Assembly (NCBI RefSeq): GCF_000687455.2
Contig: NZ_JGVW01000074.1
Location: 1 to 64,000, forward strand
Source of the DNA: Burkholderia sp. lig30
GTDB lineage: Bacteria; Pseudomonadota; Gammaproteobacteria; Burkholderiales; Burkholderiaceae
Reading direction: 5' to 3'
Length of the DNA: 64,000 bases
Below the pieces are notes generated by a model that was not told the DNA's origin, ran no database searches, and saw only the letters and a program-made list of their open reading frames with translations. The position numbers and the translations under genes were made by a program. Positions 10,264 through 63,902 of this stretch are shown here, in pieces. The first letter of the stretch is position 1. The number at the start of each line of letters is the position of its first letter.

Positions 10264-12189
10264 ATGAATCCGTCCTTCCTGATTACCGCATTGCTGTGGC
10301 TGTCGGTGGCGGGGCTCGCGTTCGCGGTCGCGAAGCGCGCGTCGTACTGGCGGCTCGGCCGGGCCACCGCGCCCGGCGCGTTCGGCGTCGCGAACCTGTT
10401 CGCGATCCCGAAGCGCTATTTCGTCGATCTGCATCACGTGGTCGCGCGCGACCCGTACATCGCGAAGACCCACGTCGTGACCGCCGGCGGCGCGATCGCC
10501 GCGCTCGCGCTGGTGTTCGTCAACTACGGTCTCGCGATCTACGCGCCGTGGCTCGACCGGCTGATTTTCGTCGCGGCGCTCGCGATGCTGATCGGCGCGG
10601 TGTTCGTGTGGCGCCGCCGTGCCGCGAAGAACGTGCCGGCGCGGCTGTCGCGCGGGCCGTGGAATACGCTGCCGTGGCTGCTCGGCGCGTTCGCGCTCGG
10701 CCTCGTGCTGTTCATGCTGGTGCCGGCCGGCGCGATGTCCGGTGCGTTCGCGGTGCTCTGCGCGCTGCTGATCGGCGTCGGCGCGTTCGCGATGACGGTC
10801 GGCGCGGCGAACGGCGGGCCGATGAAGCATGCGATCGCGGGCCTGCTGCACCTCGCGTTCCATCCGCGCCAGGAGCGTTTCGCGGCGACGCGCGAAGCGT
10901 TCACCGGCAACGGCACGGCCACGCCGCCGACCGCGCTGAAGCTGCCCGACATCGAGCAGCAGGAGTACGGCGTCGCGAAACCCGTCGAGTTCCGCTGGAA
11001 TCAGCTGCTGAGCTTCGACGCGTGTGTGCAGTGCGGCAAATGCGAGGCCGCGTGCCCCGCGTTCGCATCCGGCCAGCCGCTCAATCCGAAGAAGCTGATC
11101 CAGGATCTCGTGGTCGGGATGGCGGGCGGCAGCGACGCCGCCTATGCGGGCAGCCCGACGCCGGGTATCCCGGTCGGCCGGCATCGCGGCGAACCCGACG
11201 GGCCGATCGTGTCGGGCCTGATCGAAGCGCAGACGCTGTGGTCGTGCACGACCTGCCGCGCGTGCGTGCAGGAATGCCCGATGCTGATCGAGCACGTCGA
11301 CGCGATCGTCGACATGCGCCGCAACCAGACGCTCGTGCACGGCACGGTGCCGGGCAAGGGCGCGGACGTCCTCGCGAACCTGCGCGAGACCGGCACGATG
11401 GGCGGCTACGACACGGCCGCGCGCTACGACTGGTCGGTCGACCTGAGCGCGCCGCTCGCGCAGCCGGGCAAGCCGGTCGACGTGCTGTTCGTCGCGGGCG
11501 AAGGCGCGTTCGACATGCGCTACCAGCGCACGCTGCGCGCGTTCGTGAAGGTGTTGAACAAGGCCGGCGTCGACTACGCGGTGCTCGGCGGCGTCGAGAC
11601 CGATACCGGCGACGTCGCGCGCCGCCTCGGCGACGAGGCGACGTTCCGGCAGCTCGCGCAGCGCCTGATCGGCACGCTCTCCACGCTGTCGTACCGCCAG
11701 ATCGTCACGGCCGATCCGCACGTGATGCACAGCCTGCGCAACGAATACCGGGCGCTCGGCCTGCGCGTGACGGTCAAGCATCACACGACCTATCTCGCCG
11801 AGCTCGCCGCGAGCGGGAAGATTGCGCCGAAGGTGGTCGACGCGCTGCGCGAGAAGTGCACTACGTATCACGATCCATGCTACCTCGGCCGCTACAACGG
11901 CGAGACGGACGCGCCGCGCGCGCTGCTGAAGACGATCGGCATCCAGGTCGTCGAGATGGAGCGCAACGGCATGCGCGGCCGCTGCTGCGGCGGCGGGGGC
12001 GGTGCGCCGCTGACCGACATCCCGGGCAAGCAGCGGATTCCCGACATCCGCATCGCCGACGCGCGCGCGATCGGCGCGGACGTGGTCGCGGTCGCATGCC
12101 CGAACTGCACGGCGATGCTCGAAGGCGTCGTCGGCCCGCGTCCCGACGTGCTCGACGTCGCCGAACTCGTCGCGGCCTCGCTGGAGTGA
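10264..12189 (+). CDS. dgcB: Dimethylglycine catabolism iron-sulfur membrane protein
   Basis: A 641-residue protein with hydrophobic N-terminal helices (about residues 1-25, 75-110 and 140-180), two [4Fe-4S] ferredoxin motifs (CVQCGKCEAACP at C254 onward, CTTCRACVQECP at C328 onward) and a C-terminal CCG domain (GRCCGGGGGA near residue 574) like the heterodisulfide reductase D subunit. It probably carries electrons from DgcA/ETF to the quinone pool in the cytoplasmic membrane. In Pseudomonas both dgcA and dgcB are needed for growth on dimethylglycine. It sits 4 nt after dgcA and 4 nt before etfA, so translation is likely coupled. Confidence 0.93.
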   Translation: MNPSFLITALLWLSVAGLAFAVAKRASYWRLGRATAPGAFGVANLFAIPKRYFVDLHHVVARDPYIAKTHVVTAGGAIAALALVFVNYGLAIYAPWLDRLIFVAALAMLIGAVFVWRRRAAKNVPARLSRGPWNTLPWLLGAFALGLVLFMLVPAGAMSGAFAVLCALLIGVGAFAMTVGAANGGPMKHAIAGLLHLAFHPRQERFAATREAFTGNGTATPPTALKLPDIEQQEYGVAKPVEFRWNQLLSFDACVQCGKCEAACPAFASGQPLNPKKLIQDLVVGMAGGSDAAYAGSPTPGIPVGRHRGEPDGPIVSGLIEAQTLWSCTTCRACVQECPMLIEHVDAIVDMRRNQTLVHGTVPGKGADVLANLRETGTMGGYDTAARYDWSVDLSAPLAQPGKPVDVLFVAGEGAFDMRYQRTLRAFVKVLNKAGVDYAVLGGVETDTGDVARRLGDEATFRQLAQRLIGTLSTLSYRQIVTADPHVMHSLRNEYRALGLRVTVKHHTTYLAELAASGKIAPKVVDALREKCTTYHDPCYLGRYNGETDAPRALLKTIGIQVVEMERNGMRGRCCGGGGGAPLTDIPGKQRIPDIRIADARAIGADVVAVACPNCTAMLEGVVGPRPDVLDVAELVAASLE

Positions 12190-54038: not shown

Positions 54039-55007
54039 TCAAAGATCGAGAACCAGCTCCGCGGATTTCGCACGCGACACGCAGACCATGATCTGCGTTT
54101 CTTTCTCGTCGTCGCGCAGCACGAGATCCCGATGATCCGCCTCCCCTGAGCACAACCCTGTCTTGCACGAGCCGCAGGTGCCGCTTTCGCACGAACTCGG
54201 CACGCGCACGTTCGCGTCGCGCAGCACCTCGAGGATCGAGCGATTGGCGGGAATGTCGAACGACGTGCCGCTGCGCGCAAGCCGCACAGTGAACGGCGTG
54301 TTTTCGTGCGTCTTCGCATGGCTTGCACCGAAGCTCTCGAAGTGAACCGTGCCCGACGGCCAGTGGCCGGTCATGTCCCGCACGGTGTCCATCAGCGCCT
54401 GCGGGCCGCAGCAGTACACGTGTTGCGCCGACTTCGACCTCTCGAATACGGGCCAGAAGTCGAATGCTTTCGACGGATCGCCGTAATCGTGATGAATCTT
54501 CACGTCCGAACGCCATTCGTCGCCGGTCAGTTCATCGAAGAATGCGGTGCCTTCCGGATCGCGGGCGAGGTAGTACAGCTTGAACGAGCGCAGGCCTTCC
54601 GCCCGCAACTGCTGCGCCATCGACAGCATTGGCGTGATACCGATACCGCCCGCGACGAGGATGAATGAGTTTGCGCGCGCATCGAGGGGAAACTCGTTGC
54701 GGGGCAAAGAGACGTCCACGGCGTCGCCCTCGGCCGTATCGTCGATGAAGCTCATCGAGCCACCGCGTCCGTTGCTGTCACGCTTCACCGCGATGACGTA
54801 GCGGTTGCGCTCCTGCGAGTCATTGCACAGCGAATAACTGCGTCGCGAGCCGTTGGGCACGACGACGGTCAAGTTCGCACCGGCCTCGAACGGCGGCAAC
54901 GGCGCGCCTTGCGGGGCGGTCAGTTCAAAGCGCCAGATGTCACGGGCGACTTTCTCCTTGCCCGCAATCTTCAGACGAAGAAAACCGTCTTCCTGGGGGG
55001 TAGTCAT
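54039..55007 (-). CDS. ophA1: Phthalate dioxygenase reductase
   Basis: A 322-residue FMN/NADH reductase with a C-terminal plant-type ferredoxin. The flavin motif is RRSYSLCND, the NAD domain has FILVAGGIGITPMLSMA and HVYCCGPQALMD, and the iron-sulfur ligands are C273, C278, C281 and C309. This spacing equals that of the structurally known B. cepacia phthalate dioxygenase reductase. AAGGAGATA precedes the ATG. It is divergent from ophD, as in strain DBO1, and feeds electrons to OphA2. Confidence 0.95.
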   Translation of the reverse strand: MTTPQEDGFLRLKIAGKEKVARDIWRFELTAPQGAPLPPFEAGANLTVVVPNGSRRSYSLCNDSQERNRYVIAVKRDSNGRGGSMSFIDDTAEGDAVDVSLPRNEFPLDARANSFILVAGGIGITPMLSMAQQLRAEGLRSFKLYYLARDPEGTAFFDELTGDEWRSDVKIHHDYGDPSKAFDFWPVFERSKSAQHVYCCGPQALMDTVRDMTGHWPSGTVHFESFGASHAKTHENTPFTVRLARSGTSFDIPANRSILEVLRDANVRVPSSCESGTCGSCKTGLCSGEADHRDLVLRDDEKETQIMVCVSRAKSAELVLDL

Positions 55008-55063
55008 GCCTATCTCCTTCTGACCGGTCCGGTCTTGTGTTGCGTCAACATGGACCGCATGTT

Positions 55064-55092
55064 ATTACTAGATCTCTAGTTATGCAAGTCAA
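55064..55092 (-). promoter_or_regulatory. ophA1 promoter with TAGA-N2-TCTA operator in the spacer
   Basis: On the minus strand TTGACT (complement of 55087-55092) is the -35 and TAGTAA (complement of 55065-55070) the -10, 16 bp apart. The spacer holds ACTAGA-TC-TCTAGT (55067-55080), a palindrome with 6-bp arms that partly covers the -10. A repressor there would block RNA polymerase. Confidence 0.7.
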
Positions 55093-55136
55093 GAAAAGCC
55101 ATTCTTCTCGATCTTGCTCTCGGTATAAACCCGTTC

Positions 55137-55183
55137 TTGCCAGCGACAAAATGCCGCCTTACCTTAAGATTAGAGCTCTAATC
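55137..55183 (+). promoter_or_regulatory. ophD promoter with a perfect 16-bp operator
   Basis: TTGCCA (55137-55142) and TACCTT (55160-55165) are spaced by 17 bp. The perfect palindrome GATTAGAGCTCTAATC (55168-55183) begins just after the -10 and spans the expected start of transcription. Confidence 0.7.
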
Positions 55184-55244
55184 ATGCAGCGAGAGCCTCC
55201 CTGTTCCAGCCGGTATCCAGAGTCAAATTCGGAGACATTCAGTC

Positions 55245-56579
55245 ATGGCACATTCAACGTTGCACTCCGGGGACCTGTCCCTGCCTGTCGTAGCCGACTC
55301 GGCGGCGGAGGAAGCGACTTACCGCAAGATCACGATCAGGTTGATGAGCTTCCTTTTCGTTTGCTGGGTCCTCAACTATCTCGATCGCGTCAACGTCAGC
55401 TTCGCGCAGTTGCAGCTGAAGCACGACCTCGGCTTGAGCGACGCGGCGTACGGGCTCGGCGTGAGCCTGTTTTTCATCGGCTACATCCTGCTCGAAGTGC
55501 CGAGCACGCTGTTGTTGCGGCGCATTGGCGCTCGCAAGACCGTCACACGGATCATGCTGCTGTGGGGCAGCATCTCCACTGCCATGGCGTTCATGACCGC
55601 TCCATGGCAGTTCTATCTCGCCCGGACGCTTCTTGGCGCGGCCGAAGCGGGCTTTTGGCCCGGCATCATCCTCTATCTCTCGTACTGGTATCCGTCGAAG
55701 CGCCGCGCCCGCATCACGTCGCGGTTCTTGCTGGCGATTGCGGTTGCGGGGATCGTCGGCGGCCCGCTATCCGGGTACATCCTGCAAAACTTCATGGGCG
55801 TCTGGGGCTATCGCAACTGGCAGTGGCTGTTCTTCCTTGAAGGCTTGCCCGCCGTGATTGCCGGTGTCGTTGCCTACTTCTACCTGGTCGACCGGCCGCA
55901 AGACGCGAGGTGGCTGACCGAGGAGCAAAAGCGAATCGTCATTGGCGCGCTCGAGGACGAACACCGGAAGAAACCGCATGATGCGCCGAGCCGTCTGCTC
56001 GCCGCGCTGCGCGATCCGCGCGTGTACGTGATTGCGGCTGGCTGGGCTACGGTGCCCATCTGCGGGACCATCCTCAACTACTGGACGCCCACGATCATCA
56101 AACAGGCGGGCGTGTCCAACCTGTTGCAGATCGGCTTGCTGTCCGCGCTGCCATACATCGTCGGCGCCGTTGCCATGGTGCTGATCGCACGCAGCTCCGA
56201 CCTGCGGCTCGAGCGCCGCTGGCATTTCGTGCTGTCGACGACAGCCGGCGCCACGGGCGCGGTGCTCCTGACGGTTCTGACGCACAACTCGTTTGCCGCC
56301 ATCGCGTGCCTGAGTCTCGTTGCGGTGAGCTATTTCTCGGCCGCGGCCATCATCTGGACCATTCCGCCGAACTACCTCAAGGGCGAGGCGGCGGCTGGCG
56401 GTATCGGCGTGATCAGCAGTCTCGGTCAGGTGGGCGCTTTCTTCGCGCCCATCGTCCTCGGCTGGGTGAAGAGTGTGACCGGCAGCTTCTCGGCCGGCAT
56501 CCTGCTGGTCGCGGCGCTCGTTTTCATCGGCGGCATTGCCGTTTTCTTCGGCGTGCCGCGCGAGCGGCAGGCGCAGTAG
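55245..56579 (+). CDS. ophD: Phthalate permease, MFS
   Basis: A 444-residue MFS transporter of the anion:cation symporter family with 12 predicted helices. Helix 1 ends in [17 protein letters not shown], and the 2-3 loop is [16 protein letters not shown]. It imports phthalate across the inner membrane. GGAGA precedes the ATG. It is followed by ophC after 58 bp, the same order as ophDC in strain DBO1. Confidence 0.92.
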
Positions 56580-56637
56580 TCCGGCGCGTGACGACGCACG
56601 TGACGGACAGCATTTTGACAGTCAGACAGGAGCAGGA

Positions 56638-57630
56638 ATGAGCAAGCTTCAACTTTCCATCGCCGTTGGCAACTATGACCGGATGCGACCGCTGATCGAC
56701 GGCGACGTCCAGATCGACGGCGTCGACCCCGTGTTCATGCTGCAGGACCCGGAGGAAATTTTCTTTCGTGCCTTCCGGCACGCGGACTACGACATTTGTG
56801 AGCTTTCGCTCAGCAGCTATTCGGTGAAGACGGCCGCGGGCACGTCGCCCTACATTGCCGTGCCGGTGTTCCCTTCGCGCGCGTTCCGGCACAGCTCGAT
56901 CTATGTGCGTTCCGACCGCGGGATCGATCGTCCCGAGGACCTGAAGGGCAAGCGGATCGGCGTGCCGGAATACCAGCTCACGGCCAATGTGTGGGTCCGG
57001 CTGTTTCTGGAGGAAGAGTATGGCGTGAAGGCGTCGGACATTCGCTGGGTGCGGGGCGGCTACGAGGATCCGACACGCGTGGAGAAGATCGCGTTGAACC
57101 TGCCCGAAGGCGTCGTGCTGGAAAACGCGCCCGAAGGCCAGACGATTTCGAACCTTCTTGCCGACGGCGAGATTGACGGCGTGATCGGACCGCGCGCGCC
57201 GTCGTGCTTCGAGCGTGGACATCCGAAGGTCAAGTACCTCTTCGATGACCCGCAAAAGAGCGCCGCCGAATGGTACGAGCGCAGGACGCTCTTCCCGATC
57301 ATGCACACGCTGGGCATTCGCAAGACGCTCGCGGATCAGCACCCGTGGCTGCCCGGCGCGATCGCGAAGGCGTTCGAGCAATCAAAGGAAGTGGCGCTGG
57401 CCCGTTTGAGCGACACCTCGGCGACCAAGGTGACGCTGCCGTTCATCGAGGACCAGTTGCGCAATGCGCGGCGTCTGATGGGGCACGACTTCTGGTCGTA
57501 CGGATTCGCGAACAACGAACACGTGATCGACCGCTTCCTCGCGCAGCACCATGCCGAGGGTTTGTCGAGCCGTCGCCTGCAGCCTGCTGAACTGTTCCAC
57601 CCGGCCAGCCTGGAGCGATTCAAGATCTGA
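56638..57630 (+). CDS. ophC: 4,5-dihydroxyphthalate decarboxylase
   Basis: A 330-residue cytosolic enzyme converting 4,5-dihydroxyphthalate to protocatechuate. It starts MSKLQLSIAVGNYDRM and contains PVFMLQDPEEIFFRAFRH and GKRIGVPEYQLTANVWVRL, part of a fold related to periplasmic binding proteins. CAGGAGCAGGA precedes the ATG at 56638. The frame stays open beyond its stop codon, which is noted separately. Confidence 0.93.
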   Translation: MSKLQLSIAVGNYDRMRPLIDGDVQIDGVDPVFMLQDPEEIFFRAFRHADYDICELSLSSYSVKTAAGTSPYIAVPVFPSRAFRHSSIYVRSDRGIDRPEDLKGKRIGVPEYQLTANVWVRLFLEEEYGVKASDIRWVRGGYEDPTRVEKIALNLPEGVVLENAPEGQTISNLLADGEIDGVIGPRAPSCFERGHPKVKYLFDDPQKSAAEWYERRTLFPIMHTLGIRKTLADQHPWLPGAIAKAFEQSKEVALARLSDTSATKVTLPFIEDQLRNARRLMGHDFWSYGFANNEHVIDRFLAQHHAEGLSSRRLQPAELFHPASLERFKI

Positions 57631-57822
57631 CCTCTCGCGGCGGTCGTTGGTGCCTCAACGCCGTACGGCACGCTCACGCTCGGACGTCACCCGAACCTGC
57701 CCTACGAGCTGATGGACAAGTACGATGCGACGCTTCCGAACGGTGCGAGCGTGCCAGGCGCGACGAAGGTGGGCCGCGAAATGAGCGCGGCGGCCCAGTG
57801 CCGCTCGCGCCAGCTAACGCGC
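57631..57822 (+). pseudogene. Possible gene remnant after ophC, family unknown
   Basis: Directly after the ophC TGA the same frame is open and coding-like: it reads TPYGTLTLGRHPNLPYELMD, then KYDATLPNGASVPGATKVGR. It has no start codon or RBS of its own near the front and merges into the leader of the MarR gene. I do not recognise it. It may be the truncated end of a lost enzyme gene. Confidence 0.4.
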
Positions 57823-57849
57823 TATGATTGTCACCAGTCTGGTCACAAT
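57823..57849 (+). promoter_or_regulatory. -10 box and 23-bp palindrome before the MarR gene
   Basis: Half-sites ATTGTnACCAG (57827-57837) and CTGGTnACAAT (57839-57849) form an imperfect palindrome centred at 57838, matching at 20 of 23 positions. TATGAT (57823-57828), a likely -10, overlaps its left edge. The site is 15 bp before the ATG, a layout suited to autorepression. It differs from the TAGA-N2-TCTA box. Confidence 0.6.
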
Positions 57850-57864
57850 AACGGCGAGGAAGGT

Positions 57865-58455
57865 ATGGCAGCAGCACGTAGTTCAGGCAAGGGCGGGGGC
57901 GCGAGCGAGGACCCCATCCTGCGGCACTGGCGCGAGGCGGTGCCGGATGATCGTCTTGCTCACCTGGTGAAGGATGCGGGCCGCGCGATGATACGTGGCC
58001 TGCAAATGCGCCTGGCGCAGCATGAAGTCTCGTTCGGCCACTGGGCGTTTCTGCGTGTGCTGTGGGTCACCGACGGTCTGACGCAGAAGGAGCTCAGCGA
58101 CGAGACCGGCACCACGACGCCCACCACGTTCAGCGCGGTGTCGGCGATGGAAAAGCTCGGGTACGTCGAGCGCCGCTATGCGCCCGGCAATCGCAAGAAC
58201 ACGCACGTCTATCTCACGCCGCGCGGGCGGAGCCTGAAAAACAAGCTCGTCCCGCTCGCGGAAGAAGTCAACGAAATCAGCGTCAGGGGCCTGAAAGCCA
58301 CCGAGATCAACGTCGCGCGGAAGGTCCTGCTGGCGATCATCGAGAACATGGCACGCGACGAATCCGAGTCGGACGACCCGGCGCTGCGCATTCCGTCGAC
58401 GCGGGAAGTGGGCAACCTGATCGCGGCACGCGGCGAAGAAATCGATCAGGATTGA
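57865..58455 (+). CDS. MarR-family transcriptional regulator
   Basis: A 196-residue winged-helix regulator. The recognition region is LTQKELSDETGTTTPTTFSAVSAMEKLGYVERR (about 72-104), followed by the wing APGNRKNTHVYLTPRG. It has an extended N-terminus (about 40 residues) and a charged tail. Since it sits between ophC and ophE, it is the best candidate to control the oph genes, most likely as a repressor relieved by phthalate or an intermediate. GAGGA precedes the ATG. Confidence 0.9.
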   Translation: MAAARSSGKGGGASEDPILRHWREAVPDDRLAHLVKDAGRAMIRGLQMRLAQHEVSFGHWAFLRVLWVTDGLTQKELSDETGTTTPTTFSAVSAMEKLGYVERRYAPGNRKNTHVYLTPRGRSLKNKLVPLAEEVNEISVRGLKATEINVARKVLLAIIENMARDESESDDPALRIPSTREVGNLIAARGEEIDQD

Positions 58456-58496
58456 GGCGCAGCGCTTCAGGTCATTCCCGAGTAGCAATCAAATTA

Positions 58497-58542
58497 TAGA
58501 TCTAATAATATTGGCGAGCGTGCCAGGTCCAAGACTGGCACG
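58497..58542 (+). promoter_or_regulatory. ophE upstream region: TAGATCTA box and inverted repeat
   Basis: TAGATCTA (58497-58504) lies in AT-rich sequence and resembles the oph box without its 2-bp centre. It is followed by perfect 8-bp arms CGTGCCAG (58519-58526) and CTGGCACG (58535-58542), 51 bp before the ophE start. The second element could be an operator or a leader hairpin. Confidence 0.5.
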
Positions 58543-58592
58543 ACGGCAGGCCACTGCATGCTGATTTCTCGCTCAAAAGATACGGATCTGGA

Positions 58593-59438
58593 ATGGATGG
58601 AATGACCCGCGCGGCGATGACGCGCAACGTCCGCGATGCGCTCGCGGAAGATGTCGGCGAGGCCGACTGGACGTCGCTACTGATCGACCCCGACGCTTCA
58701 GCCGAAGCTGTCCTGACTGTGCGCGAACCCGCCCTGCTGTGCGGCAGGCCGTGGTTCGACGAAACACTCCAGCAGGTCGACCCGCGCATCACGATTGAAT
58801 GGTTTGTCGGCGAAGGCGAACGGATGCGCGAAGGGCAGGCCGTCTGCCGGATCGCTGGCCCGGCGCGCGGTATGCTCACCGCCGAGCGCACCGCGCTCAA
58901 CTTCATTCAGTTGCTTTCTGGCGTGGCCACCGAGACGAACGTGATGACGCGGATCGTCGAAGGCACGTCCGCGCGGATTCTCGACACGCGAAAAACGCTA
59001 CCCGGATTGCGCCTCGCGCAAAAGTACGCGGTGTGTATCGGCGGCGGCGAAAACCATCGTCGCGGGCTGTACGACGGTATCCTGATCAAGGAAAACCACA
59101 TCGCGGCGGGCGGCGGCATTGCGTCGACGCTTCGCGCCACTCAAGCGTTGGGTGCGGGTGTGCCCGTGCAGGTCGAGGTGGAGACGCTCGATGAGTTAAA
59201 CGAAGCGTTGGCTGGGGGCGCCGCGGCGATTCTGCTCGACAATTTCTCGATCGAGGCGATGCGCGAGGCGGTGCGCGTCACCGCAGGGCGAGCCGAGCTG
59301 GAAGTCTCGGGCGGTGTGACCGAGGAGACGCTGCGAACCATTGCCGAGACCGGCGTGGACCGCATTTCGCTCGGCAAGCTGACGAAGAACGTCAGGGCGA
59401 TTGATTTTTCGCTGCGCTTCGCAGCGTTCGCCGGGTAA
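58593..59438 (+). CDS. ophE: Quinolinate phosphoribosyltransferase paralogue in the phthalate cluster
   Basis: A 281-residue NadC-family enzyme. Active-site segments are TAERTALNFIQLLSGVAT, ARILDTRKTLPGLR, GGGENHRRGLYDGILIKENH and VEVETLDELNEA. NadC converts quinolinate and PRPP to nicotinate mononucleotide. Phthalate resembles quinolinate, so an additional copy in the cluster probably keeps NAD synthesis going when phthalate inhibits the housekeeping enzyme; this was proposed for ophE in strain DBO1. The ATG at 58602 is an alternative start. Confidence 0.92.
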   Translation: MDGMTRAAMTRNVRDALAEDVGEADWTSLLIDPDASAEAVLTVREPALLCGRPWFDETLQQVDPRITIEWFVGEGERMREGQAVCRIAGPARGMLTAERTALNFIQLLSGVATETNVMTRIVEGTSARILDTRKTLPGLRLAQKYAVCIGGGENHRRGLYDGILIKENHIAAGGGIASTLRATQALGAGVPVQVEVETLDELNEALAGGAAAILLDNFSIEAMREAVRVTAGRAELEVSGGVTEETLRTIAETGVDRISLGKLTKNVRAIDFSLRFAAFAG

Positions 59439-59544
59439 CGAGATCGGGGCGAACGGGGCGCATGTGTGCGCCCCGTCGAAGCTGGGGGCTGCCTGTTGCC
59501 TGCTTTCCGGATTTCAAACTGTCCGGTTTGCCGGAAGCACCGAT

Positions 59545-59591
59545 AAAAAAACCTCGCTTTAACAGAGTACATGGCTCTGTTCAAAGCGAGG
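59545..59591 (-). terminator. Terminator after ophB
   Basis: CCTCGCTTT-AACAGAG (59552-59567) pairs with CTCTGTT-C-AAAGCGAGG (59575-59591), a 16-bp stem with one bulge. Seven A (59545-59551) give a U-tract for minus-strand transcripts. A second GC hairpin at 59454-59475 probably serves ophE on the other strand. Confidence 0.8.
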
Positions 59592-59620
59592 GTAACGAGG
59601 GCTTTTACGCTTACCCCGGA

Positions 59621-60799
59621 CTATGAAAGCGTGACATCTGCGCCCGTTTCGCTCGACTTCAGAATCGCGACGCAGATTTCCAGCGTGCCCTTCGCCCATT
59701 CGCCATCGTGTAGCGGCCCGCATCCGTCGACCACCGCGCCATACAGCTCGTCGATCACTTCGGCGCGCGGCACGGCGGGTGCGGGCAGCGGCAGCGTCTG
59801 GCGCTGTTCGTCGCCGTAGACGACGATCGAATCGGGCAGCGGACGCAGGTCCGCATGCTCGCAAGACACGATAACCGGGCCGAAATGCTGATGAAATCGC
59901 AGCGGCTCGTCCGCGGTGGCCGTTGGCGGCTTGTATGCCGATCCGCCGTAGGTGCCGGCCGCCTTGAGCCTGGCCTCGTCGTCCGAGGACTCGAGCGTCT
60001 CCAGACGGCGGCGGGCGCTGCCGTACGCGTCGGGGTTCGTGCGATCACCCATCTCGCCGATCCAGCCGCTCCACTCATCGGTGTTGAAGTGGCCGTAGCC
60101 GTTGTACGAGAGCGACGCATACGCGCCGTTCTCGAACCAGATCAGCGCCGAATACGCCCCCTCGGTCGGGCGCGACGGATCCCACCGGCCGACGCTCGCG
60201 CGCAGCCGGGTCGCGCGCGAGCCGGCCAGCATTCGCACGATGTCGACCTGGTGCGCGGCCTGGCTGAAGACGGCGCCGCCGCCTTCGGCTGTCGCCAGCT
60301 CCTCGGGCCGGCGCGGTCGGTACAGGTAGTCGGTGTAATTGACGGCCTGAATCATTTTTACCGCTCCGAAATCGCCGAGGTCGATCAGTTCGCGCGTACG
60401 CAGGTACGGCGTGTCGAAACTGTGGCAATGGCCGACGATCAGATGCACGTTCGCTGCGCGGCATGCAGCGATCATGCGATCGCAGTCCGCAGCAGCGAGC
60501 GCCATCGGCTTTTCGACCAGCACGTGTTTGCCTTTCGCCGCGGCAATTTCCGTGTGATGCGCGTGGAACTGGTGCGGACTCGCAACGTAGATGATCTCGA
60601 CGTCAGGGTCCTCCGCCAACTCCGCGACGCCCGCATAGGTGGGCGCCGCGAAGTCGGCGGCGAACTGCCGCCGCGCTTCCTCACGCGGATCGCACGCAGC
60701 GACGAGCTGGACTCTGGAGTCGCGCAGGAAGGTCGGCAGCATCAGCGAGAATGCCCGTCCCAGTCCCGCGACCCCGATGCGCAAACGGCGCTGCTCCAT
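59621..60799 (-). CDS. ophB: cis-Phthalate dihydrodiol dehydrogenase
   Basis: A 392-residue Gfo/Idh/MocA-family NAD-dependent dehydrogenase. The Rossmann motif is [12 protein letters not shown], the EKP motif is in [11 protein letters not shown], and the catalytic segment [18 protein letters not shown] follows. It oxidises the cis-dihydrodiol from OphA2 to 4,5-dihydroxyphthalate. GGGAGG precedes the ATG at 60799. It follows ophA2 by 16 bp in one operon. Confidence 0.93.
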
Positions 60800-60815
60800 G
60801 GCCGTGTGCCTCCCG

Positions 60816-62147
60816 TTATTGCTTGACCTGATAGTCCGTTGCGAGCGCGGACGGCTGGTCGTCAGGTTCCGGGTTCTTCTTGCTGACGTAACGCGCGGCA
60901 TACGTGCGCCAGTCGATTTCTTTCGGCACGACAGCCTGGTACGAGCACACTTCCCGGGGAATCGCCTGCGCACCGGTGCCGATGGCTTCGCCATCCTTCT
61001 CGAATTCGGCGAGCGCGTCGATCATGCGGCGTCGGAATTCGACGATCGCGAGATCGCTTGCGCCGAGGCGCTCGTCCGACCGGTTCGCAATCGGGCCCAT
61101 CGTGACCCACATGGCGACGTCCTGGTTCGGGAAGCCCGAGATGCCGGTGAAATTGCCGGCCTTCATCGCCTGGCGGTCCTGCCAGAAGCGGTTGTCGTGA
61201 TTGCGCAGCGGGCGATAGTACGGGTCGAGATCAATACCGACCTGCTGACGCAGGAACTTGCGCCACGTTTCGTTTTCCGGCGTCGTCTCCGGATCGCCCC
61301 AGGCCATGAAGTAGAACACTGTGTTCGTGTCGTCCATCGGCACGTTGACGTTCGCGACGTTGTACAGATTGTTCGGCGGAATCAGCACCGTTCCCGGCGC
61401 CACGAACACCGTGGAGCGCACGTAGTCGTGCGTGTTGGCGTTGAAGATCGGGCGGCGCAGCGCGGCGTAACGAAAACCGTAACCGGTGCGCTCGACCTGC
61501 AGCCGCGGCGCCTTGTCGGTGGACGGGCGCAGCCAGTTCTTGCCGGTCGCTTCGGCGCCGCCGACGCGTGCCGGCACGAAGTCCGACGAATGCAGGCTCG
61601 AGCTGTGCGCGGAATCGATCGCGCCTTCGAGAATCTGCGCCCAGTTGCACGGCAGCAGCACCTTCGCGATGCTCACGCGGGTGTCGGCGGTCGGCGCCCA
61701 GGCCGGCGGCACGAACTCGGGGATGGCGTTTTGCGGGCCCATGTACGCCCACACCATGCCGCCCCATTCCTGCACTGGATAGGCCTTGTGCTTGACCTTG
61801 TCGGTCATGCAGCTCGACGCGGGTTCGGACGCCATTTCGAGCACGTTGCCGGCGACGTCGAACTTCCAGCCGTGATACAGGCAGCGCAGGCCGGCATCTT
61901 CGTTGCGGCCGTAGACGAGCGATGCGCGGCGGTGCGGGCAGTACTCGTCGAGCACGCCGACGCGGCCTTCGGAATCGCGGAATACGACGAGATCCTCGCC
62001 GAATATGCGCGCTTTGACCGGCGCGCCGTCCGGCTCGCTGACTTCTTCGATGAGGCAAACCGGCGTCCAGTGTCGGCGCATCAACTGGCCCATCGGGGCA
62101 TCGCCTTCGACGCGGCACAGCAATTCGTTTTCTTGGTGGGTCAGCAT
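60816..62147 (-). CDS. ophA2: Phthalate 4,5-dioxygenase, oxygenase subunit
   Basis: A 443-residue Rieske oxygenase. The Rieske ligands are C70, H72, C89 and H92 ([14 protein letters not shown]). The mononuclear-iron segment [19 protein letters not shown] has D178, H181 and H186. It hydroxylates phthalate at positions 4 and 5 with electrons from OphA1. GGGAGA precedes the ATG. It belongs to the single-component oxygenase group with no beta subunit. Confidence 0.95.
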
Positions 62148-62195
62148 GTAATGTCTCCCGGCGAGAGGTCGCCTTCATCAACAGGTGTGGCTCAA

Positions 62196-62224
62196 CTATA
62201 TTAGAGATCTAGTTATACTGGCAA
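62196..62224 (-). promoter_or_regulatory. ophA2B promoter with TAGA-N2-TCTA operator
   Basis: On the minus strand TTGCCA (complement of 62219-62224) is the -35 and ATATAG (complement of 62196-62201) the -10, with a 17-bp spacer. The spacer holds the box; in plus-strand sense it reads ATTAGA-GA-TCTAGT (62200-62213). This is the same layout as the ophA1 promoter. Confidence 0.7.
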
Positions 62225-62341
62225 GAACCTTTCGGTGCATGCGGGAAAGTACGGACGGTCGAAAGTGCCGATGGACCAGAAATATTCGATCCCTAATATA
62301 AAGAAGCGGGATTCATCGCCGATAGATACGGTGAGCTTAAA

Positions 62342-62355
62342 AATAGAGATCTAAT
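62342..62355 (+). promoter_or_regulatory. oph-type box overlapping the chemoreceptor ribosome-binding site
   Basis: AATAGA-GA-TCTAAT (62342-62355) matches the TAGA-N2-TCTA boxes of the oph promoters. It ends 2 nt before the ATG at 62358, and its AGAGA is the only purine-rich candidate for the ribosome-binding site. Confidence 0.65.
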
Positions 62356-62357
62356 AC

Positions 62358-63902
62358 ATGAGACGAATCACCTTTTATCAGAAGCTCTGGATCCCCCTTG
62401 CGATTTCCTTGCTATGCATCGCGGCGATTGCGGCGTTTGGCGTGATTCAGGACAAACTGGACGGCATTGCGGAGCGCGAACGCGCACTGCGCGAGATTGC
62501 CGATATCGCCGGGACCACGGTGTCGCGCTACCAGCAACTCGTCGCCTCCGGCCAGTTGAGTCCCGCGGACGGCAAGCGCGAGGCGCTGGCTGCGCTTCGT
62601 GCGATGCGCTTCGGCAGGGACGGCTACATTGTCGTCATCGATCCCGGGATGCATGCGGTGATGAATCCCTCGAAACCGGAAACCGAGGGCAAGTTCCTCG
62701 GTGACTACACCGACGCGAAAGGGGTGTACGTCTATCGTCGAATGACCGCGGTCGCGAACGACAGTGGCGGGGGCTTCGTCGATTACTACACGCATCGGCC
62801 CGGTGAAACCGCCCAGGTCAGAAAGCGCAGCATGGTCAAACGCTCATCGGCCTGGAACTGGATATTCGTCACTGGCGAGTATGTGGACGATATCGATTCC
62901 GCGTTCTGGCGCTCCATGTATGTGGCGTTGTTTTTTGTCGCGGCAATCAGCGTTGTGCTGGGTGTCCTGGTCTTTCTCGTCAACCGCTCCTTGATTCGCG
63001 CCCTCGGCGGTTCTCCCGAATACGCGAAGACCGTCGTGCGCGCAACGGCAAGCGGTGACCTGTCCTGTGCGATTGACTCGCGAGCCGCCGAGGACAGCCT
63101 GGTCGGGCAAATCCGCGTGATGCAAACGCGTTTGCGCGCAGCCGTTTCGGAGATTCAGCGAGGCGCCGAGACCATCACGCTGGCGATGGAGGAGGTGGCG
63201 ACAGGAAACGCGGACCTGTCGCAACGAACCGAAGCACAGGCTGCTGCGCTCCAGCAGACCGCAGCGAGTCTTGCACAGTTCAAGTCGGCTGTCGCCGATA
63301 ACTCGGTGAACGCGGAGAGCGCTGCGCGCCGCGCCGCGGACGCGCTGAATTCAGCCCGGCAAGGTTATGAAGCGGTTAGCGCGGTGGCCGGGACAATGAA
63401 CAACATCGCGGCCAGCTCGGCGGAGGTCAACAACATCGTGGGCATGATTCAGGGCGTGTCCTTCCAGACGAATATTCTCGCCCTGAACGCGGCGGTCGAG
63501 GCAGCACGCGCCCGGGAGCATGGGCGCGGCTTTGCTGTCGTGGCATCGGAAGTGCGGGCGCTTGCGCAACGGTCGTCTGTCGCGTCGCGGAACATCGAAA
63601 CGCTGATTGGCACGTCGGATGGACACGTTCGGCAGGGCGCAAGACAGGCGAGTGTGGCGGGCGAGCGCGTCGAAGAGATACTCGATACCGTTCGACAGGT
63701 CGATGGTGTGCTGAGAGAGATCGCGTCCGCGTCCGAGGAGCAACGCAACGGCGTCGAAGAGCTGTCGCGCGCGTTGTCGCAGATCGACGACGTCACGCAA
63801 CACAACGCAGCCCTCGTGGAAGAATCCGCCGCGGCGACTGAAGCGGTGCGAGATCAGGCCAGAAAGCTTCTCGAAAGCGTTTCGAGTTTCAGGCTGGCAT
63901 AG
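62358..63902 (+). CDS. Methyl-accepting chemotaxis protein with single Cache domain
   Basis: A 514-residue chemoreceptor. Helix 1 (about 10-30) and helix 2 (about 192-212) flank a periplasmic single-Cache (sCache_2) domain, with GRDGYIVVIDPGMHAVMNPSKP and WNWIFVTGEYVDDIDSAF. The signalling tip is near [17 protein letters not shown]. It ends FRLA with no CheR pentapeptide. It is divergent from ophA2 and carries an oph-type box at its start, so phthalate or a related aromatic acid is the most likely attractant. This is inferred from context and not from ligand-pocket residues. Confidence 0.92.
   Translation: MRRITFYQKLWIPLAISLLCIAAIAAFGVIQDKLDGIAERERALREIADIAGTTVSRYQQLVASGQLSPADGKREALAALRAMRFGRDGYIVVIDPGMHAVMNPSKPETEGKFLGDYTDAKGVYVYRRMTAVANDSGGGFVDYYTHRPGETAQVRKRSMVKRSSAWNWIFVTGEYVDDIDSAFWRSMYVALFFVAAISVVLGVLVFLVNRSLIRALGGSPEYAKTVVRATASGDLSCAIDSRAAEDSLVGQIRVMQTRLRAAVSEIQRGAETITLAMEEVATGNADLSQRTEAQAAALQQTAASLAQFKSAVADNSVNAESAARRAADALNSARQGYEAVSAVAGTMNNIAASSAEVNNIVGMIQGVSFQTNILALNAAVEAARAREHGRGFAVVASEVRALAQRSSVASRNIETLIGTSDGHVRQGARQASVAGERVEEILDTVRQVDGVLREIASASEEQRNGVEELSRALSQIDDVTQHNAALVEESAAATEAVRDQARKLLESVSSFRLA

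What the first reader, a model, noticed from the sequence alone, without database searches (positions are those of the whole stretch)
55064..62355. A shared TAGA-N2-TCTA palindrome defines a candidate phthalate regulon
Four intergenic sites share TAGA-N2-TCTA with 6-bp or nearly 6-bp arms: ophA1 (55067-55080), ophD (55168-55183, perfect 16-mer), ophA2 (62200-62213) and the chemoreceptor (62342-62355). ophE has a version without the 2-bp centre (58497-58504). Three of them sit inside or just after plausible -35/-10 pairs, as repressor sites do. I found no similar box at other promoters in the window.
Basis: partly seen in the sequence, partly recalled or inferred. Interest (0 to 1): 0.78.

Follow-up and report, generated by a model that had tools for sequence, protein, structure and literature searches.

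The report
Shared operator of phthalate genes
A short mirror-image DNA word stands in front of the genes this bacterium would use to sense, import and break down phthalate, and the same word stands before the same genes in many other bacteria; most likely the repressor encoded among those genes binds it, which is an ordinary kind of switch with a seemingly undescribed operator.

Summary
Confirmed and extended. The four TAGA-N2-TCTA sites are real and are the only exact copies in the 5.5-Mb genome. They are the cores of a 20-22-bp palindrome, roughly TAWWATTAGATATCTAATWWTA. There are six sites: the ophE site has the normal 2-bp centre with one mismatch, and a sixth lies at 62280-62301. With the 20-mer at up to 2 mismatches, 6 of 7 genome hits lie here. 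In 111 loci (1.99 Mb, four fetched twice) the matrix finds 243 sites at 18 bits or more, 0 in a Markov-2 null; about 130 are its own training sites. Boxes follow operon heads when genes are rearranged. In 11 genomes chosen by phthalate oxygenase alone, 11 encode a relative of the cluster's MarR protein and 10 carry the palindrome upstream of ophA2. The first residue of the predicted recognition helix covaries with an operator base, but on only two changes in the tree. Best explanation: a MarR repressor of phthalate uptake, catabolism and chemotaxis. Binding, repression and inducer were not tested. New member of a known kind.

The parts
55063..55084 (.). operator O1 (ophA1), TATTACTAGATCTCTAGTTATG, centre about 67 bp upstream of the ophA1 start
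   Evidence: 29.9 bits; ophA1 has a >=18-bit site within 140 bp upstream in 31 of 31 window-type clusters, three of them fetched twice
55165..55186 (.). operator O2 (ophD), TAAGATTAGAGCTCTAATCATG, centre about 70 bp upstream of the ophD start
   Evidence: 27.2 bits; ophD 31 of 31 window-type clusters
58489..58510 (.). operator O3 (ophE), TCAAATTATAGATCTAATAATA, one core mismatch, centre about 93 bp upstream of ophE
   Evidence: 26.9 bits; ophE 23 of 27 window-type clusters; aligned
62196..62217 (.). operator O4 (ophA2), CTATATTAGAGATCTAGTTATA, centre about 60 bp upstream of ophA2, inside a promoter-like spacer
   Evidence: 30.4 bits; promoter-like match; ophA2 23 of 30 window-type clusters, the other 7 having ophA2 in tandem behind ophA1
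   Evidence: 21.2 bits; whole-genome 20-mer hit with 2 mismatches
62338..62359 (.). operator O6 (chemoreceptor), TAAAAATAGAGATCTAATACAT, reaching the start codon at 62358
   Evidence: 25.1 bits; same site in L054
57865..58455 (+). MarR-family regulator, 196 aa, proposed repressor
   Evidence: PF01047 33 bits against cut-off 24.6; winged-helix model, mean pLDDT 80.9
54039..55007 (-). ophA1, reductase component
   Evidence: Fer2, NAD- and FAD-binding domains
55245..56579 (+). ophD, MFS permease
   Evidence: MFS_1
56641..57630 (+). ophC, 4,5-dihydroxyphthalate decarboxylase family
   Evidence: 61% identical to a Polaromonas protein annotated so; Pfam gives only a weak solute-binding-fold match
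58593..59438 (+). ophE, quinolinate phosphoribosyltransferase
   Evidence: TIGR00078 above cut-off
59621..60799 (-). ophB, Gfo/Idh/MocA dehydrogenase
   Evidence: PF01408
60816..62147 (-). ophA2, Rieske oxygenase
   Evidence: PF00355 and PF19301
62358..63902 (+). methyl-accepting chemotaxis protein with a single Cache domain
   Evidence: PF00015 and PF17200

Best explanation
The boxes are operators of the cluster's own MarR-family protein (57865-58455). A dimer binds the 20-22-bp palindrome at the promoters of ophA1, ophD(C), ophE, ophA2(B) and the chemoreceptor gene and keeps RNA polymerase out. Phthalate or an early metabolite binds the dimer and releases it, so uptake, catabolism and chemotaxis switch on together. 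Shown by computation: a shared, conserved, palindromic site at operon heads, tied to phthalate genes that travel with this type of MarR. Inferred: that this MarR is the binder, that the effect is repression, and what the inducer is.
For: Genome specificity: 6 of 7 20-mer hits at <=2 mismatches lie here. Conservation: 243 sites >=18 bits in 111 loci against 0 in four Markov-2 sequences of the same length; 207 lie within 260 bp upstream of an annotated oph, marR or mcp start; about 130 of the 243 are the exact-core sites that trained the matrix. Operon heads: ophA1 31 of 31, ophD 31 of 31, ophE 23 of 27, ophA2 23 of 30 window-type clusters; the 7 without an ophA2 box have ophA2 in tandem behind ophA1. 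Choice by OphA2 alone: 9 of 300 order genomes and 5 of 398 phylum genomes, 11 besides the window's; 11 of 11 encode a MarR relative, 9 of 11 on the same contig within about 10 kb; 10 of 11 have the palindrome upstream of ophA2, once with a core mismatch. Fit: residue 85 non-Glu, base A in 194 of 222 half-sites; Glu, base C in 52 of 76; residue 85 begins a predicted helix at the place of the recognition helix. The box also stands at the marR start in L120 (23.2 bits) and, weaker, L117 (17.9 bits). The ophA2 box fills a -35/-10 spacer.
Against: No binding or expression data. marR has no box in the window, although MarR sites are often found in marR promoters (PMC5487221, passages); another imperfect palindrome lies there. 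The covariation rests on two residue changes and its independent-pairs test cannot reach significance. The 80 main loci were chosen through MarR, so co-occurrence in them is circular. Clusters L164 and L165 (Sphingobium) have a distant MarR and no such palindrome upstream of ophA2. 13 of 100 loci with oph genes have no site at 18 bits; nine of them have a diverged CTTAG-N4-CTAAG form near an oph start. ophE of L059-L061 and L076 reaches no 18 bits. The scanner called no promoter at ophA1, ophD or ophE.
Confidence: 0.82

Rival explanations
1. The box is a true operator of the phthalate regulon, but a regulator encoded elsewhere binds it, and the local MarR binds something else, such as the palindrome at its own promoter.
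For: No box at marR in the window; a 23-bp imperfect palindrome lies there instead. MarR relatives without oph genes nearby (L101, L104, L109, L110, L113) have no box.
Against: 11 of 11 OphA2-chosen genomes encode this MarR type; recognition-helix residue and operator base change together; box at marR itself in L120. The 23-bp palindrome is kept as such only in the window, L054 and L057 among the loci printed.
Confidence: 0.09
2. The MarR binds the box but acts as an activator, or both ways, rather than as a simple repressor.
For: Some MarR proteins activate (PMC9613470, passages). Two conserved boxes stand between ophA1 and ophD at a restricted spacing, and a further conserved block lies between them.
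Against: The ophA2 box fills the -35/-10 spacer, and O6 reaches the start codon; both places suit blocking.
Confidence: 0.07
3. The boxes are AT-rich promoter parts or chance palindromes without a dedicated binder.
For: Palindromes as such are common in the window; the bare 10-mer occurs in 57 of 65 genus genomes.
Against: A shared sequence with 0 matrix hits in the Markov-2 null, conserved on both half-sites, at differing distances from the start codon and at operon heads only.
Confidence: 0.02

Closest known systems
IadR (MarR_73) and the auxin (iad) locus of Variovorax (PMC9613470, passages seen)
   Same: A MarR repressor in an aromatic catabolic locus, released by the pathway substrate; a 24-bp binding sequence upstream of the catabolic genes was mapped
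   Different: Ligand is IAA; one mapped site, against six boxes here; operator letters were not in the passages seen, so they were not compared
OphR, IclR family, phthalate operon of Rhodococcus sp. DK17 (PMC8222616, passages seen)
   Same: Control of phthalate catabolism
   Different: Another protein family and another listed motif (CGCGTACGCG)
phtR, MarR-family gene of the Sphingobium yanoikuyae SHJ phthalate cluster (PMC6051330, passages seen)
   Same: A MarR gene annotated in a phthalate cluster and said to take part in its regulation
   Different: No operator was given in the passages seen; on the related plasmid region L165 no such palindrome lies upstream of ophA2
PecS of Vibrio vulnificus, a MarR-family protein with 18-bp palindromes (PMC6391409, passages seen)
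   Same: MarR-family repressor with AT-rich palindromic sites in divergent promoters
   Different: Different operator letters (TATCTTTATATTAAGATA), ligands urate and xanthine, efflux target

Membership tests
MarR family of transcription factors | MarR winged-helix domain by curated profile | tested here: met
   PF01047 33 bits against 24.6; PF12802 32.9 against 27
MarR family of transcription factors | winged-helix fold between dimerisation helices | tested here: inconclusive
   Monomer model with the expected helices and wing strands, mean pLDDT 80.9; fold search was off, dimer not modelled
MarR-type repressor regulon | shared palindromic site of about 16-24 bp at target promoters | tested here: met
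MarR-type repressor regulon | site also at the regulator's own promoter (common, not universal) | tested here: not met
   no box at marR in the window; present at marR in L120, weaker in L117 and L162
MarR-type repressor regulon | the regulator binds the site and a ligand releases it | not testable with these tools
   needs gel shift and footprinting
known named MarR equivalogs (HpaR, SlyA, OhrR, FabT and others in NCBIfam) | score above the curated cut-off | tested here: not met
   8 models matched, all far below cut-off, e.g. HpaR 30.8 against 121.2
IclR-type phthalate regulators (OphR of Rhodococcus) | IclR-family protein in the cluster and a CGCGTACGCG-like motif | tested here: not met
   the cluster's regulator matches MarR best; HTH_IclR only weakly as a generic helix-turn-helix; the operator differs

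The most novel reading that the evidence does not exclude
The phthalate MarR and its operator are a natural case of repeated specificity change: loss of a glutamate at the first residue of the recognition helix (85), to Thr in the window's clade and to Ala in Caballeronia, and by eye also in the Acidovorax plasmid L137 against Polaromonas L138, goes with a change of the operator base pair at +-6.5 from C to A, while regulons with different transporters and chemoreceptors were carried along.
Probability: 0.45. Interest if true: 0.6.

Novelty: new member of a known kind. Interest (0 to 1): 0.5.

Why it matters
No operator for a MarR-type phthalate regulator was found in the open-licence library by the searches made (subscription papers mostly not held). 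If right, the box lets one read off which transporters, enzymes and chemoreceptors belong to phthalate use in new genomes, offers a part for an o-phthalate biosensor, and makes joint control of chemotaxis and catabolism testable.

Tried and rejected
The bare 10-mer as evidence: too weak, 57 of 65 genus genomes have it, and G011, without this MarR at E <= 1e-20, has 10 copies. The 14-mer at 2 mismatches: not specific. Off-cluster 10-mers of G046 and G051 as further regulon members: 12 stretches fetched, 11 have no matrix score above 14.5 bits, one (L193) has 25.7 bits but no oph gene recognised beside it. The marR-promoter palindrome as the operator: not kept as a palindrome in most relatives printed. 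Reversed sequence as control for the short core [TC]TAG-N4-CTA[AG]: useless, 199 real against 175 reversed, since its reverse is a commoner word; for the matrix the reversed control gave 0 at 18 bits, 1 at 16 and 16 at 14 and the Markov-2 null 0, 0 and 2.0. My core pattern was mistyped (T[TC]AG) and took in distant OphA2 paralogues; one search replaces it. Phylogenetic test of the covariation: too few changes. Idea that the MarR belongs to the urate-responsive (HucR/PecS) group: a lead from memory, not tested. Fold comparison: tool off. Palindromes as such: 148 places with 16-20 bp and at most one mismatch in the window, so not unusual.
Full report
What is there. The window ends in a phthalate cluster: ophA1 (reductase), ophD (permease), ophC (decarboxylase family), a MarR gene, ophE (quinolinate phosphoribosyltransferase), ophB, ophA2 (Rieske oxygenase) and a Cache-domain chemoreceptor.

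Check of the sites. The core alone is not diagnostic: 57 of 65 genus genomes have one or more, and the 14-mer with two mismatches has 6 hits here and 8 elsewhere. A symmetric matrix built from 105 different sites (130 in all) of the window and 86 relatives' loci shows information over 20-22 bp with A/T-rich flanks. In the window a softened form of it gives six sites of 21.2-30.4 bits, O1-O6, the next best in 64 kb being 9.1. With the 20-mer at up to two mismatches the genome has seven hits, six of them these.

Relatives used. One scan for relatives of the MarR protein confirmed 128 places and kept 80 (L053-L132). With the window that is 111 loci, 1.99 Mb.

Conservation. At 18 bits or more there are 243 sites; four Markov-2 sequences of the same length gave none, the reversed loci none. 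About 130 of the 243 are the matrix's own training sites, so the sum is not independent, but the place is: 207 lie within 260 bp upstream of an annotated oph, marR or mcp start (medians 67 bp ophA1, 86 ophD, 84 ophE, 60 ophA2), 36 elsewhere. 87 of 100 loci with ophA1, A2, C or D at 50% identity or more have a site; of the 11 others 2 have one. Those two are L078 and L136, both with an ophE relative beside the box. Of the nine without, L126 and L201 still hold ophB, L205 is a contig end, L166 is Rhodococcus, and five are Caballeronia MarR relatives without oph genes. Of the 13 oph loci without a site, nine (L118, L123, L129, L130, L132, L158, L159, L198, L202) have a diverged CTTAG-N4-CTAAG palindrome near an oph start. 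L164 and L165 have none upstream of ophA2 (L165 has one core match at 11266, at an annotated ferredoxin start), nor has L167; L204 is a 4-kb contig piece.

Boxes follow operon heads. In clusters arranged like the window's, ophA1 and ophD have a site in 31 of 31, ophE in 23 of 27, ophA2 in 23 of 30, mcp in 3 of 3. The seven without an ophA2 box are those with ophA2 in tandem behind ophA1 (L067, L071, L072, L074 and second fetches L188-L190). In other arrangements the box stands before other heads: ophA1 and ophD in Caballeronia, ophA2 and marR in L120; on annotated plasmids before a TRAP binding protein (L160), a chemoreceptor about 90 bp downstream (L163, 15263), an aldehyde dehydrogenase (L163) and a citrate synthase (L137). 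Chemoreceptor genes of L054, L075 and L133 also have one. In aligned intergenic DNA of 13, 10 and 11 chosen loci the TAGA/TCTA columns of O1, O2 and O4 are invariant and those of O3 nearly so, within flanks that vary.

Which protein. To avoid choosing by MarR, genomes were chosen by OphA2 at E <= 1e-100: 9 of 300 of the order and 5 of 398 of the phylum, that is 11 besides the window's own, one found in both. All 11 encode a MarR relative (8 of 8; 3 of 3; ten at 57-63% identity, one, G451, at 38%, E 8e-23); in 9 it is on the OphA2 contig within about 10 kb, in G201 and G116 on another contig. In 10 of 11 the palindrome lies upstream of ophA2, in nine about 36-70 bp and in one (L141) about 166 bp away; L143 has one core mismatch; the eleventh, L146, has no site but is cut by a contig end at ophA2's start. 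In the gammaproteobacterial plasmid L161 boxes before ophA1 go with a MarR 39% identical to the window's.

Operator-regulator fit. By the residue aligned to MarR 85: with Thr, Ala or Gln the base 5' of the core is A in 194 of 222 half-sites (C in 3); with Glu it is C in 52 of 76 (A in 14, G in 9) (149 sites in 84 loci; 20 aligned loci gave no site by its pattern and are left out). By locus: non-Glu 53 A, 1 C; Glu 25 C, 3 A, 2 other. In the model residue 85 begins the helix at the place of the recognition helix (the helix name is my reading). On a tree of 104 proteins without that column the residue changes twice and the base five times, and only one or two independent pairs exist, so the test cannot decide. 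L137 (Ala, ATTAG sites) against L138 (Glu, CTTAG site) looks like a third case, by eye.

How it most likely works. A MarR dimer covers the box and blocks polymerase. At ophA2 the box fills the spacer of TTGCCA-18-TATAGT. At ophA1 and ophD -35/-10 readings are by eye and the scanner did not call them. Phthalate or an early metabolite would release the repressor; this is inference from the family (PMC5487221, PMC9613470; passages). Against the usual pattern, marR's own promoter lacks the box here.

Literature. Ten searches and passages of nine papers showed IclR-type phthalate regulators and one MarR gene named phtR, but no operator for a MarR-type phthalate regulator. Two papers on Burkholderia phthalate uptake were not held, so a published account cannot be excluded.

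Verdict.

Noticed in passing
55122-55132: A second conserved block, GGTATAAACCC, lies between the ophA1 and ophD boxes: largely invariant in 13 aligned loci, the only copy in the window, and present as GGTA(A/T)AAACCC in 21 of 28 loci L053-L080. It could be another regulator's site or a promoter part.
   Followed up: partly
57827-57849: Imperfect 23-bp palindrome ATTGTCACCAGTCTGGTCACAAT (10 of 11 pairs) at the marR promoter; reported as a palindrome also in L054 and L057, broken in the other relatives printed.
   Followed up: partly
55073 and 55175 (box centres): The distance between the ophA1 and ophD boxes is 92-94 bp in 4 and 101-104 bp in 27 of 31 window-type clusters (three fetched twice), with nothing between: about one helical turn apart, as if phase matters.
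   Followed up: no
window 54039-63902: Only 3 of 65 genus genomes, the window's included, have this MarR, and the window's copy groups with Paraburkholderia lycopersici (97%) rather than with the other two; this suggests horizontal transfer of the cluster.
   Followed up: partly
L101, L104, L109, L110, L113: Caballeronia loci with a MarR 61-67% identical to the window's, no oph gene and no box nearby; L113's copy has a stop in the matched frame. Their targets are unknown.
   Followed up: no
L065 and L087: CTTAG-N4-CTAAG palindromes stand upstream of distant OphA2 paralogues (31-32% identity), so other Rieske clusters may use related operators.
   Followed up: no
L063 17412, L069 3595, L077 4784, L193 1973: Strong boxes (25.7-28.1 bits) beside genes not identified here; possible further regulon members.
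   Followed up: no
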